NCBI GenBank assembly: GCA_015709495.1
Contig: CP054189.1
Location: forward strand, 1,426,001 to 1,490,000
DNA: 64,000 nt
DNA from: Chthonomonadaceae bacterium
Lineage (GTDB): Bacteria; Armatimonadota; Fimbriimonadia; Fimbriimonadales; Fimbriimonadaceae
Direction of reading: 5' to 3'
The position numbers and the translations under genes were made by a program. The first letter of the stretch is position 1. Each line of letters begins with the position of its first letter. The notes under the pieces are model-generated. The model did no database searches and was not told where the DNA came from. It saw only the letters and a list, made by a program, of their open reading frames with translations. Positions 33,563 to 37,587 of this stretch are shown piece after piece.

Positions 33563-34270
33563 ATGCCTTTGCTCCTATGCCTAGCCCTTCAGGGCGAGAT
33601 TGCGACGGCTGGGTCGCTCCGGGAGACCCTGCGAGAAGGGAAGGTCGAAGTTCGCTTGGCGCTCGCTCCTTTGAACTCCCAACCCCACCTTTACGCCCTC
33701 GGTCCAGTAACCGGCTTGCGAGGCGAGATTACGGTCGTCGACGGGGTCATTCACGTGGGGACTGTGGTTGGCGGCCGGCCGTTGGCCACGGTGGAACGCG
33801 AGGCGCAGGCCGTGTTTCTGGCTTACACCTATGTCGCGTCGTGGTCGGAGGTGGCGTCAGGCGATGCCGGGGGGCTTGCCGAGATCGCCTCGGCCCTCTC
33901 CCGGACGAAGCGGGAGCGGACTCCCTTTCATGTGACTGGCCGGGTGAAGCGGGCCGACTACCATATCATGGATTATCGGCCCGACGGGGGGCCTTGGTCG
34001 ATGGACAAGCACGACCAGGCAAAGGCTAAGTTCGCGCTCCAGGAGCAAGACGTCACATTGTTTGGGTTCTACACCGAGCGGGAAGAAGATGCGGGGTTGT
34101 TCGTCCATCACGGCGAGCGGATTCACGCCCATGTGGTCGCTCAAGGCGCGACCGGCCACCTCGACGCGATCACCCTCGAGCCCGGGTGGAAGTTGCTCCT
34201 TCCCTCAGGCACGGCCAGTCCGAGGGAGGGGCTGGCGACGCGCACCCCCATTTCGGTCTTGTCGCTGTAA
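33563..34270 (+). CDS. Secreted acetolactate-decarboxylase-like protein
   Basis: 235 residues with a short signal peptide (PLLLCLALQGEIATAG). The body resembles alpha-acetolactate decarboxylase: HLYALGPVTGLRGEITVVDGV near the start and VTLFGFYTERE. A metal-ligand pattern follows in HAHVVAQGATGHLDAITLEPG, with His-x-His then His, but with a shorter gap than BudA. The reaction may differ and export is unusual, so function is tentative. The ATG at 33563 gives a signal peptide; an in-frame GTG at 33557 and a longer ORF from 33410 are possible. Its last about 130 bases overlap a broken gene on the other strand. Confidence 0.55.
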   Translation: MPLLLCLALQGEIATAGSLRETLREGKVEVRLALAPLNSQPHLYALGPVTGLRGEITVVDGVIHVGTVVGGRPLATVEREAQAVFLAYTYVASWSEVASGDAGGLAEIASALSRTKRERTPFHVTGRVKRADYHIMDYRPDGGPWSMDKHDQAKAKFALQEQDVTLFGFYTEREEDAGLFVHHGERIHAHVVAQGATGHLDAITLEPGWKLLLPSGTASPREGLATRTPISVLSL

Positions 34271-34830
34271 CCCTCGACCAGTTCGCGGACGGTGATGTTC
34301 TTGAGGTCGATCTTCATTGGCAGAGAGGTCTTACCCCGAAGCCTTGCTTCGACGTCGCGAATCTTCTCCCAAGGTTCTGAGTTTCTTGACTCAATGTCGT
34401 CGATTATCCGCTCCTTCTCGTCGATCCACCCCTGAACCTGATCTGCGAAGTCGTCTGACGTTGCGTCGGTTTTCAGATCTTCGCAGTGATCGATCTGGCC
34501 CTTGAGCCTCTCAATCATGTCCTCACCCTTGTCAATCTGGGCGTGCCACCTATCCAGGTGTTCGCGGTTGCGCTCGACCCATTCCTCATGCTTCTGTTCT
34601 TGCATCTCGCGGACCCACTCGCAGACGCGCTGGAAGTCTTCCCAAAGCTCTTCCCGGTCGGATCGCCGCATTGGCTTCGTCTCCCGAAACGTCTCGCTGA
34701 CCTCCTTCGCGTCGGCCCAGAACTCCTTTAGGTCTGCACCCCTAAGGAAGTTTCCGACGTAGTCGAGATCGTGGGCGTGCTTCAGATGATTCACTGCGTT
34801 CCACACTCGATCTCGATTCTCGTTTAGCAA
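34141..34830 (-). pseudogene. Broken coiled-coil gene fused to a DUF262 N-terminal fragment
   Basis: Open reading frame of 229 codons without a credible beginning or end. The first about 170 residues are an acidic coiled coil rich in Glu, Arg, Asp and Trp (KHEEWVERNREHLDRW). The reading frame opens at a TAG near 34931 inside the repeat flank and has no good start codon (TTG at 34830). Then MKIDLKNITVRELVEGYSD appears, which is how DUF262 (ParB/Sulfiredoxin-fold) proteins of restriction and defence loci begin, but homology stops within about 25 residues, near position 34235. Beyond that the frame runs through the opposite-strand gene. I read it as the leftover of a deletion or insertion event. 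Confidence 0.5.
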
Positions 34831-34967
34831 TTGCTCTCTGCGTTCGCGCTGGCTGTGCTGCCGCTCCTTGACGGAAGCCCTTCCAGGGTTGGCGACGGGG
34901 TGGCGAGGGTGAGCGCCCTGGCGCTACGCCCTTGGGATACCTTGGATCCGACCTCCTCCAAGCACCC

Positions 34968-35360
34968 TTGACACGCGAGACGCGTGCGCTCCCAGTGGAC
35001 GCTCCTAGTGGACGCTCTTACGCGAAGGAAATTGACACGCGAGACTCGTGCGCTCCCGGGGGGCGCTCTCACGCGAAGGGTCTTGACACGCGAGAAGCGT
35101 GCGCTCCCGGGGGCGCTCCTAGTGGACGCTCTCACGCGAAGGAAATTGACACGCGAGACGCGTGCGCTCCCGGGGGCGCTCCTAGTGGACGCTCTCACGC
35201 GGAGGGACTTGACACGCGAGACGCGTGCGCTCCCAGTGGGCGCTCTTACGCGGAGGGTCTTGACACGCGAGACGCATGCGCTCCCAGGGGCCGCTCTCAC
35301 GCGAAGGGTCTTGACACGCGAGACGCGTGCGCTCCCGGGGGCGCTCCCGGGGGCAGAGAG
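34968..35360 (+). repeat. Seven-unit GC-rich tandem repeat
   Basis: Units begin TTGACACGCGAGACGCGTGC at 34968, 35032, 35083, 35146, 35209, 35260 and 35311. Complete units are 51, 63 or 64 bases; the long ones carry an extra block ending CTAGTGGACG. Each unit contains an ACGCG-AGA-CGCGT inverted repeat and a TTGACA hexamer. All reading frames on both strands are nearly open because unit lengths are mostly multiples of three; the resulting peptides are repetitive and should not be taken as genes. The stretch 34831-34967 holds nothing else I can identify. Confidence 0.92.
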
Positions 35361-35366
35361 TATTCT
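35361..35366 (+). promoter_or_regulatory. Leaderless -10 box of the GAF-domain gene
   Basis: TATTCT directly after the last repeat unit, followed by CGCATT and GTG at 35373. The nearest TTGACA (35311) is 44 bases away, too far to be its -35. Confidence 0.5.
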
Positions 35367-35372
35367 CGCATT

Positions 35373-35825
35373 GTGATCGAGGATCGTCTTTGGCAAGCAG
35401 TGTTGGGCAGGATCGCGGGGTTGACCGAGCGGGGGTTCGAGCTGCGCGCGCGGGCGATGGCCGAACTCGCGCAGATCGAGGGATACGATTGGTGCGGGGT
35501 GTATCGGCTCGAAGGGGAGGACTTAGCTCTCGATGCCTTCGTGGGTGAACCTACCGAGCACACGCGGATTCCGGTCGGCATTGGGGTTTGCGGGACCGCG
35601 GTGGCGAAGGACTCGAACCAGGTGGTGCGGGACGTTCGCGAACTTGAAAACTACCTTTCGTGCTCGGTTCAGACGCGCTCGGAGATCGTGGTGTTGATCA
35701 AGGACTCCGAAGGGCGAACGCTGGGGCAAATCGACATCGACGGGCATCGCGTCGGCTCGTTCGATTCGAGTGACGAGGCCTTTCTGGCTGAACTGGGACG
35801 ACTGCTCGCCGAAAGGTGGGAGTGA
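35373..35825 (+). CDS. GAF-domain free-methionine-(R)-sulfoxide-reductase-like protein
   Basis: 150 residues, a single GAF domain of the fRMsr (YebR/MsrC) type: DWCGVYRLEGEDLALDAF, RIPVGIGVCGTAV with C73, SCSVQTRSEIVVLI with C97 and the end GQIDIDGHRVGSFDSSDEAFL. In E. coli three cysteines take part; the first position is replaced by H63 here (EHTRI). C73 and C97 remain, so activity is possible but altered. The GTG at 35373 follows TATTCT-CGCATT exactly; the frame continues upstream through the repeat but that part is not coding. Confidence 0.82.
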   Translation: MIEDRLWQAVLGRIAGLTERGFELRARAMAELAQIEGYDWCGVYRLEGEDLALDAFVGEPTEHTRIPVGIGVCGTAVAKDSNQVVRDVRELENYLSCSVQTRSEIVVLIKDSEGRTLGQIDIDGHRVGSFDSSDEAFLAELGRLLAERWE

Positions 35826-35853
35826 GTTCGCGTCCTTCGTCCATCAAAAACCC

Positions 35854-37587
35854 TCAAGGCGTTGGCTCGTTCGGAGGCGCAGAATCGGCGTTTAGCTCGG
35901 ACACGGTTCCCTCCGAGAGCATTCGGGCTCGAACGACGGCAGCTTCGATGTCGGGCTGGACGTTCTCTTCGCCGATCAGATTCGCGAAGGCGAATCGCTT
36001 GATCAGGTTGGCTGGTTGGCCCCTGAGCCCGCACAGAATCAGGACTCGGCCCGTCGATTTCAGGTGCTCGTACAAGCTTTCCATCGCATGAAGCCCGGTC
36101 GAATCCAGCGCGGTCATGTTCCTGAGCCGCAAGATCACGATTCGAGGCAACGTCGGCAGTTCGTCTTCGACGATCTCCAGCTTATCGGTCGAGCCAAAGA
36201 GAAACGGCCCGTGGATTCGGTAGATGGCGACGTCGTCGGGCAGTCCGGTGAGCTGCAAGCTGTGTCGGAGCCCGTCTTGAATGTACTCAGGGGTCACCCG
36301 CGCAACGGTCGTGGTCGTCGTCACTCGTCGAATGTAGAGCAGCGCGGCAAGCACCATGCCGGCCTCGACCGCGACCGTCAGATCGGCGAACACGGTGAGC
36401 ACGAAGGTGATCGCCCATACCGCGGCGTCCGCCTTAGTTTGTCGCAAGATGTCGGGGATTTCCGACCATTCGCCCATGTTGTAGGCGACCACCAAGAGGA
36501 TCGCTGCGAGCACGGCGAGCGGGATGCGCTCGGCGAGGCTGGTCCCGATCGCGAGGATTCCCAGCAACGTCAGCGCGTGGATCATGCCCGCCACAGGCGT
36601 CTTTGCGCCGGATCGGATGTTCGTGGCGGTCCGGGCGATCGCGCCGGTCGCGGGAAGCCCTCCGAACAGCGGCGAGGTGAGGTTGGCTACCCCCTGGGCG
36701 ACCAACTCGACGTTGGGGTTGTGCTTGTCCTTCGACATCCGGTCGGCGACGACGGCGGAAAGCAGCGACTCGATCGCGCCGAGCATTGCGACGGTCATCG
36801 CTGGAGACAGCAAAGGCAGGAGCAACGCGACTCGAAACGTCGGGATTTCCAGCTTCGGCAATCCGGACGGGATCTCTCCGAACCGGCTTGCGATGGTATC
36901 GGTCGGAATCGCGAACGCGGCGACGGCCGCTGTTCCCAGCACCATCACGAGGATCGGGCCAGGGACCTTTTTGAGCCACTTAGCGGCCACGAGCAGAATC
37001 ACCAGAGAACCGACGGCGACGGAGGTCGTGGCTGCGTCCAGGGTGTGCCAATGGGTAGCGACGGCCCACATCCTATCCGCGAACTCTCCCGGAACGCGCT
37101 CGATTTCGAGGCCGAAGAAGTCCTTGATCTGCGTGCTGGCGATCAGAACGGCGATGCCGTTGGTAAAACCGATGACGACGGGTCGTGGAAAGTACTTGAC
37201 CGCGGTGCCCAAGCCCGTCGCACCCAGCAGCACGAGTATTACGCCCGCCATCAAGGTACACATGAACAGACCGTCCATGCCGTGCTTTTGGACGATCCCC
37301 GACACGACAACCACGAACGCGCCGGTGGGGCCCCCGATCTGAGTGGTGGACCCTCCGAGGGCCGAGATCAGGAACCCCGCGACCACCGCGCAATAGATTC
37401 CTGATTGGGGAGTGACGCCCGACGCGATCCCAAACGCCATTGCCAGCGGCAGGGCGACCAGGCCAACGGTCACTCCTGCAATGAGGTCCGAAACGAACTT
37501 GCTCCAACTGTACTCGCGAAGGGCCGTGACGGACTTCGGCAGCCGACTCGTGAGCGCTTCGGCCAGGTCCAGCGAAGGTTTGCTCAA
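35854..37587 (-). CDS. SulP-family anion transporter with STAS domain
   Basis: 577 residues. A membrane domain (about 25-420) of ten or more helices holds the SulP signature region SGVTPQSGIYCAVVAGFLISALGGSTTQIGGPTGAF-like segment (split here as SGVTPQSGIYCAVV and TQIGGPTGAFVVVV) and NPNVELVAQGVANLTSPLFGGLPATGAIARTATN-like motif near residue 290-325. A C-terminal STAS domain (about 460-560) carries VILRLRNMTALDSTGLHAMESLY. Members move sulfate, bicarbonate or dicarboxylates. Start overlaps the ArsR stop by 4 bases, so the regulator and transporter are coupled. Confidence 0.92.
   Translation of the reverse strand: MSKPSLDLAEALTSRLPKSVTALREYSWSKFVSDLIAGVTVGLVALPLAMAFGIASGVTPQSGIYCAVVAGFLISALGGSTTQIGGPTGAFVVVVSGIVQKHGMDGLFMCTLMAGVILVLLGATGLGTAVKYFPRPVVIGFTNGIAVLIASTQIKDFFGLEIERVPGEFADRMWAVATHWHTLDAATTSVAVGSLVILLVAAKWLKKVPGPILVMVLGTAAVAAFAIPTDTIASRFGEIPSGLPKLEIPTFRVALLLPLLSPAMTVAMLGAIESLLSAVVADRMSKDKHNPNVELVAQGVANLTSPLFGGLPATGAIARTATNIRSGAKTPVAGMIHALTLLGILAIGTSLAERIPLAVLAAILLVVAYNMGEWSEIPDILRQTKADAAVWAITFVLTVFADLTVAVEAGMVLAALLYIRRVTTTTTVARVTPEYIQDGLRHSLQLTGLPDDVAIYRIHGPFLFGSTDKLEIVEDELPTLPRIVILRLRNMTALDSTGLHAMESLYEHLKSTGRVLILCGLRGQPANLIKRFAFANLIGEENVQPDIEAAVVRARMLSEGTVSELNADSAPPNEPTP

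What the first reader, a model, noticed from the sequence alone, without database searches (positions are those of the whole stretch)
34968..35360. Seven-unit repeat with TTGACA in each unit
Unit lengths 51, 63 or 64 bases, internal ACGCG-AGA-CGCGT dyads and almost unbroken reading frames in several directions. Each unit exposes a perfect -35 hexamer and a short hairpin, so the array could be a regulator binding cluster, a recombination hotspot or a genome-wide interspersed family.
Basis: seen in the sequence. Interest (0 to 1): 0.5.

Follow-up and report, generated by a model that had tools for sequence, protein, structure and literature searches.

The report
REP hairpin array near a GAF gene
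This is a tandem cluster of small DNA hairpins from a repeat family that also flanks a "REP transposase" gene elsewhere in the same chromosome, so it is most likely a nest of miniature hitch-hiking DNA elements rather than a promoter or regulator-binding array.

Summary
The array is real: seven head-to-tail units (64, 51, 63, 63, 51, 51 bp and a partial 44). That core, a CAYGCG-RGA-CGCRTG hairpin followed by GCGYTCC, gives 35 hits (backwards control: 1), 34 of them in six arrays at five loci. Two of those arrays flank, facing outwards, a REP-associated tyrosine transposase (RAYT) gene whose stop codon abuts the first copy. TTGACA is absent from the other five arrays, and no sigma-70-like promoter was found at the window array. 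A same-species genome has 4 units here instead of 7, with the core kept and the spacers changed. Hairpins with different but paired stems and the same GYTCC tail flank part of the related RAYTs in other genera and two in Bacteroidota. Best reading: a REP array of a RAYT subtype whose REPs carry a GYTCC/GGARC tag rather than GTAG. Seeding by the RAYT, and growth by slippage or recombination, are inferred. New variant of a known kind.

The parts
34968..35354 (+). Array of seven head-to-tail REP units (64, 51, 63, 63, 51, 51 bp and a partial 44-bp last unit)
34972..34992 (+). REP core 1 (CACGCG-AGA-CGCGTG + CGCTCC tail), stem 6 of 6 pairs
35036..35056 (+). REP core 2, stem 5 of 6 pairs
35087..35107 (+). 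REP core 3, stem 5 of 6 pairs
35150..35170 (+). REP core 4, stem 6 of 6 pairs
35213..35233 (+). REP core 5, stem 6 of 6 pairs
35264..35284 (+). REP core 6, stem 5 of 6 pairs
35315..35335 (+). REP core 7, stem 6 of 6 pairs
35329..35354 (+). 12-bp tail sub-repeat at the end of the array (2.2 copies of GCGCTCCCGGGG); another tail sub-repeat (13 bp, 2.4 copies) is at 34987-35017
35373..35825 (+). Downstream neighbour: GAF-domain protein (150 aa, GTG start), about 18 bp after the array; its frame is open upstream through the array, but relatives align from about its own start onwards
34141..34830 (-). Upstream neighbour: divergent ORF without a Pfam match (229 aa); among 31 loci compared it has a relative only in the same-species genome

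Best explanation
The array is a cluster of REP elements (repetitive extragenic palindromes) of the family that belongs to the RAYT (TnpA-REP) gene at G000:C1:2159604-2160212 in the same chromosome. Each unit is a 6-bp stem with an RGA loop followed by GCGYTCC (on the other strand, GGARCGC 5' of the hairpin), plus a locus-specific spacer. Shown: the core recurs in six arrays at five loci, two of which flank the RAYT in outward orientation; array loci are shared between two same-species genomes while unit numbers and spacers differ; related RAYTs in other genomes often carry hairpins with other, still paired stems and the same tail. Inferred from work on E. coli, Stenotrophomonas and Marinomonas TnpA-REP enzymes: the RAYT binds the single-stranded hairpin and tag, cuts and rejoins, and so seeded a REP in this divergent intergenic region; the array then grew and was homogenised by replication slippage, unequal recombination or gene conversion, with the hairpin and tail kept. 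Any effect on the neighbouring GAF gene would be incidental.
For: 34 of 35 core hits in the genome lie in six arrays, against 1 control hit. The RAYT's TAG stop abuts a REP copy; seven copies lie downstream and four upstream, with tails pointing away from the gene. The gene product is called REP-associated tyrosine transposase by NCBIfam NF047646 (100.9 bits, cut-off 80), matches E. coli TnpA-REP 4er8 (E 3.5e-7) and has NHVH (107), WQ (155) and Tyr176. Hairpin+GYTCC lies within 350 bp of 11 of 21 close-RAYT loci against 5 of 49 other Y1/RAYT loci (Fisher p 3.0e-4; shuffles of the 21: mean 1.3, max 3 of 20 runs; the 21 loci come from 10 genomes, 7 loci from one). Without naming the tail beforehand, GCTCC is the commonest pentamer after hairpins at close-RAYT loci (9 of 24, against 1 of 49 others and 0.0 in shuffles; these 24 include the own locus and two loci found through the motif). 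Genomes with at least 2 core copies: 6 of 12 with a close RAYT (E <= 1e-40) against 4 of 101 without (p 6.3e-5); leaving out the own species, 4 of 10 against 4 of 101 (p 0.0020). Free stem positions pair in 110 of 153 cases over 51 distinct cores (shuffle mean 64.6, max 82 of 2000), with 10 different fully paired stem triplets. Core identity exceeds spacer identity in 12 of 12 arrays (six arrays in two genomes).
Against: No mobilisation was observed: both same-species genomes have arrays at the same five loci, and no empty site was found. Of 24 distant stretches with tandem cores, only 2 carry a relative of this RAYT in the fetched DNA of at most 8 kb. Two genomes of the order with many copies (G047 112, G055 21) have no close RAYT, and 10 of 21 close-RAYT loci lack the hairpin+GYTCC by my definition. 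RAYT divergence between the two genomes gives dN 0.017 and dS 0.015, that is no sign of purifying selection, on only 10 differences. Three of the seven hairpins here carry a mismatch and two of these barely fold as DNA. The thresholds for 'close RAYT' and for 'at least 2 copies' were set after seeing the lists.
Confidence: 0.8

Rival explanations
1. Neutral minisatellite (VNTR): a tandem repeat that grows and shrinks by slippage or unequal recombination, with no link to a transposase.
For: Unit number differs between two same-species genomes (7 against 4 here; 5 of 6 arrays differ) and spacers are homogenised within each genome. This is also part of the preferred reading for how the array grows.
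Against: It does not explain the same core at five loci with unrelated flanks, the outward pair around a RAYT, the kept hairpin and tail, or paired stem changes in other genomes.
Confidence: 0.12
2. Regulatory array: seven -35 boxes or operator sites that control the divergent genes.
For: It lies between divergent ORFs, about 18 bp before the GAF start; TTGACA is in 7 of 7 units and in 4 of 4 units of the same-species genome.
Against: No sigma-70-like pair in 34700-35500 (organisms with other promoter types are not covered). TTGACA is absent from the other five arrays. Unit number is not conserved. The same core lies at sites with other gene contexts, for example beside a tRNA-Gln.
Confidence: 0.04
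3. Coding repeat: the array is translated, as an N-terminal extension of the GAF protein or as an Arg-rich protein on the other strand.
For: Two of six frames are open through the array, one of them continuous with the GAF gene; most unit lengths are multiples of 3.
Against: The first unit is 64 bp and one unit of the same-species genome is 52 bp; the array of 68-bp units at the RAYT has stops in all six frames; relatives' GAF proteins align from about residue 1-34 of the short form; the minus-strand ORF has no Pfam match.
Confidence: 0.02
4. CRISPR-like array.
For: Regular direct repeats of about 25 bp with spacers of 26-39 bp.
Against: Spacers are copies of each other (mean identity 0.69). 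I did not search for cas genes.
Confidence: 0.01

Closest known systems
REP / REPtron of TnpA-REP (RAYT) subclass 2.6 = RAYT group 5 (PMC6006769, passages and section 12 seen; mapping to Bertels' groups as that paper states it)
   Same: RAYT with NHVH, WQ, YIH-NP and SS near the C-terminus; flanked by hairpins without GT[AG]G; copies elsewhere in the genome; relatives in Bacteroidota.
   Different: Here YIHMNP instead of YIH[QN]NP; the subclass was described as mostly Bacteroidetes; the tail motif is not in the passages I saw (the paper's Table S1 could not be opened and may hold it).
GTAG-tagged REPs and BIME/REPIN (E. coli, Pseudomonas, Stenotrophomonas; PMC3733652 and PMC8266576, passages seen)
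   Same: Short intergenic hairpins with a conserved unpaired tag on one side, flanking a RAYT gene; clusters.
   Different: Tag is GYTCC (GGARC on the other strand), not GTAG. Arrays here are head-to-tail (direct), not alternating.
CGTC-tagged REPs (PMC3733652, passages seen)
   Same: Short palindromes with an unpaired tag.
   Different: Those have stems of 8-9 bp, loops of 4-5, rare clusters and no associated transposase; here the stem is 6, the loop 3, clusters dominate and a RAYT is flanked.
Class 3 TnpA-Y1 with CnGA-foot structures (PMC6006769, passages seen)
   Same: Atypical structures in high copy, Planctomycetes among the hosts.
   Different: Class 3 proteins have a Y----Q motif; this one has YIHMNP.

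Membership tests
REP elements (RAYT-associated) | Short palindrome able to form a hairpin | tested here: met
   Perfect core folds at -7.1 kcal/mol as DNA (z -2.46), but two of the four window variants barely fold; paired stem changes across genomes.
REP elements (RAYT-associated) | Multiple intergenic copies in the genome | tested here: met
   35 core hits against 1 control; intergenic position judged from ORFs at some arrays only, so 'intergenic' is not tested for all.
REP elements (RAYT-associated) | Same repeat flanks a RAYT gene | tested here: met
Canonical GTAG REP | GTAG or GTGG at the foot of the hairpin | tested here: not met
   Every listed core ends in GYTCC (GGARC on the other strand); the core pattern itself requires this, but the sequence around the hairpin shows no GTAG foot.
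BIME / REPIN | Units in alternating or inverted orientation | tested here: not met
   Within each of the six arrays all units point one way; only the two arrays around the RAYT are inverted to each other.
RAYT subclass 2.6 (group 5) | NH[LIV]H, WQ, YIH[QN]NP, C-terminal SS | tested here: inconclusive
   NHVH, WQ and SS present; YIHMNP differs at one place (motif table seen). The paper's own profiles were not at hand.
[quoted passage not shown]
   No structure was predicted.
Active TnpA-REP | Cleaves and joins single-stranded REP | not testable with these tools
   Needs an enzyme assay.
Sigma-70 promoter array | -35 and -10 hexamers at 16-18 bp | tested here: not met
   0 found in 34700-35500.

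The most novel reading that the evidence does not exclude
A third large class of tagged REPs exists beside the GTAG and CGTC classes: hairpins with freely changing but paired stems, a short purine loop (RGA in the form searched) and an invariant GYTCC/GGARC tag, tied to a RAYT clade that spans several phyla (copies seen in Planctomycetota, Verrucomicrobiota, Chloroflexota, Bacteroidota, Acidimicrobiia and this order). The tag, not the stem, would be what the enzyme reads.
Probability: 0.4. Interest if true: 0.6.

Novelty: new variant of a known kind. Interest (0 to 1): 0.4.

Why it matters
REP elements are mostly defined by a GTAG tag. If a whole RAYT subclass uses GYTCC/GGARC, the rule by which these enzymes choose their DNA can be tested by comparing subclasses, and many unexplained GC-rich hairpin repeats in Planctomycetota, Verrucomicrobiota and others would get a name. 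The two same-species genomes also offer a small natural experiment: hairpin and tail kept, spacers and unit number changing.

Tried and rejected
Promoter array: rejected. Known RNA family: no Rfam match up to E 1 in 34000-36500. Coding repeat: rejected. CRISPR: rejected on spacer similarity. Spread on viruses or plasmids: no relative of the RAYT in viral contigs by the search for related loci (a close-relative search only); in plasmids 10 records, the best 29.6% identical, not followed. Empty site: I looked for CCCGCG-type copies of the same-species genome G094 in G000; the surroundings are themselves dispersed repeats, so no clean empty site came out. An empty site for the window array in other genera could not be read because the left neighbour has no relative in the loci compared. 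Purifying selection on the RAYT: not seen (dN 0.017, dS 0.015, 10 differences; the second method failed with a division by zero). Core patterns were written with the tail fixed, so counts with them cannot by themselves show that the tail is conserved; two searches were made for that, and the other tails tried (GYAG, CTRC, CCYCG, GGARC, CYTGG) showed no significant excess at close RAYTs (lowest p 0.06). RAYT tree: 48 RAYTs; the label 'hairpin+GYTCC' needs 10 changes against 15.2 in shuffles (0-1 of 500 as low); it includes two loci found through the motif, and near-copies add to the clustering.

Full report
1. The observation. Units are 64, 51, 63, 63, 51, 51 bp and a partial 44. Two frames of six are open. 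The array ends about 18 bp before the GTG start of a GAF-domain gene (35373-35825) and lies between that gene and a divergent ORF without a Pfam match.

2. Not unique, but not through the 20-mer. In the window's genome (one contig, 2,897,187 bases) the 20-mer with up to 2 mismatches occurs 7 times, all here. With the whole array as query, further arrays appear. The core CGNGACGCRYGCGYTCCY with up to 1 mismatch gives 35 hits against 1 for the backwards control. Of these, 34 lie in six arrays: A1 1214503-1214748 (5), A2 the window (7), A3 2159161-2159597 (7), A3' 2160321-2160552 (4), A4 2290936-2291181 (5), A5 2313802-2314106 (6). The 35th is single (505856). A1, A4 and A5 share a 57-bp type of unit, and the cross-matches between their surroundings were confined to the array (same-species copies of A4 and A5 compared with A1).

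3. A RAYT sits between A3 and A3'. L135:705-1313 on the minus strand (G000:C1:2159604-2160212) encodes 202 residues. Its TAG stop abuts the first A3 copy, and on both sides the GYTCC tails point away from the gene. NCBIfam calls it REP-associated tyrosine transposase (100.9 bits, cut-off 80), Pfam Y1_Tnp (32.3 bits, cut-off 23), and E. coli TnpA-REP 4er8 matches it (E 3.5e-7). NHVH starts at 107, WQ at 155, the presumed catalytic Tyr is 176. The genome has three other Y1_Tnp matches; the fetched surroundings of those three hold no core. A further RAYT-like match at 2478776 has no core hit near it.

4. Same species, different array. G094, labelled same species, has at the same place 4 units of 51, 52, 51 and a partial 44 bp, with flanks 95-97% identical. 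All four cores are identical to the commonest window core, while the spacer is GGGACGCTTCCACGCG-like in its three full units and CGCTCTCACGCG-like in the window. Array sizes G000/G094 by one script: A2 7/4, A1 5/6, A3 7/7, A3' 3/9, A4 4/7, A5 6/8; core identity exceeds spacer identity in 12 of 12 (with a looser pattern counts 4 and 5 for A3' and A4 of G000). The RAYT of the two genomes differs at 10 bases and 8 residues; dN 0.017, dS 0.015, so these data show no purifying selection.

5. The wider family. In 113 genomes of the order, the pattern CNNNCGRGACGNNNGCGYTCC occurs in 22, with at least 2 copies in 10; the backwards control never exceeds 1 copy in a genome. Genomes with a close relative of the RAYT (E <= 1e-40) number 12, of which 6 have at least 2 copies; of the other 101, 4 do. 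The four exceptions include G047 with 112 copies, many of the listed ones in inverted pairs 60-230 bp apart, and G055 with 21. Single copies elsewhere are near the control level. A tandem pattern scanned over genome contigs gave 24 stretches from 12 records' genomes by title: 10 stretches of Planctomycetota, 5 of Verrucomicrobiota, 4 of Chloroflexota, 4 of Bacteroidota and 1 of Acidimicrobiia (no control was run, and the pattern needs GAGA in its first copy). Stems there are GCAGGCG/CGCCTGC, GCGGGCG/CGCCCGC, GCAAGCG/CGCTTGC, GCGGTCG/CGACCGC and others. Over 51 distinct cores the three free stem positions pair in 110 of 153 cases (shuffle mean 64.6, max 82 of 2000). Two of the 24 stretches (Paludibacteraceae L120, Prevotellaceae L126) hold a RAYT about 47% identical to the window genome's, with cores next to it; 22 of 24 hold none in the fetched DNA.

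6. Is the tail tied to the RAYT? Around 74 RAYT or Y1 loci I looked for hairpins followed by GYTCC within 350 bp. Leaving out the own species and the two loci found through the motif, 11 of 21 close-RAYT loci have one against 5 of 49 others (p 3.0e-4; shuffles mean 1.3, max 3). The 21 loci come from 10 genomes, 7 of them from G079; by genome 6 of 10 have at least one. Five other tails tried gave no significant excess. With no tail named beforehand GCTCC leads (9 of 24). Of the ten close loci without it, L150 has the hairpin with TGCCCC instead and L151 has a hairpin ending GCGTTCCC that my rule missed, so the tail also varies. On a tree of 48 RAYTs the label is clustered (10 changes against 15.2).

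7. Comparison with what is printed. Passages of PMC3733652 describe GTAG and CGTC classes. PMC6006769 (passages, section 12) says subclass 2.6 genes, mostly in Bacteroidetes, are flanked by atypical structures without GT[AG]G, found by hand, with copies elsewhere in the genome; our RAYT fits that subclass's motifs but for one residue. PMC8266576 (passages) shows for other subclasses that tag and loop matter for cleavage. Six 16-base versions of the core occur in none of the 5.39 million held papers; supplements were not searchable, and Table S1 of PMC6006769 may show the motif. No paper on REPs in this lineage stood out in the 15 listed of 119; the lineage is not named by any search.

8. Verdict. 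The array is a REP cluster of a RAYT system, with the link to the RAYT shown by position and by co-distribution, and the mobilisation inferred. It is a variant in tag (GYTCC/GGARC) and in arrangement (direct arrays). It is not a promoter or regulator array on present evidence.

Noticed in passing
G000:C1:470459-471202 (L139): A second REP family: CGGTCTGCYCTNCGRGTCAGACCGGG with up to 3 mismatches occurs 26 times against 0 controls and flanks another RAYT (NF047646 97.4 bits), so this genome seems to hold two RAYTs each with its own REP family.
   Followed up: partly
L208:2322-2495 and L207:1088-1108 (G094): Another variant core (CCCGCG-AGA-CGCGGG-CGCTCC) lies inside larger dispersed repeats of the same-species genome, in L208 as a run of short tail repeats; the surroundings have many partial copies in G000.
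   Followed up: partly
G047 (112 core copies): A genome of another family of the order has 112 core copies, many of the listed ones as inverted pairs, yet no close relative of this RAYT; it has one Y1_Tnp match.
   Followed up: no
L136:873-1547: Beside array A4 an ORF starts with a stretch that looks to me like a UvrA fragment (recognised from memory, not tested).
   Followed up: no
L137:1084-1428 (G000:C1:1843083-1843427): An ordinary IS200/IS605-type transposase (NF033573 66.6 bits, cut-off 55), without the core near it.
   Followed up: no
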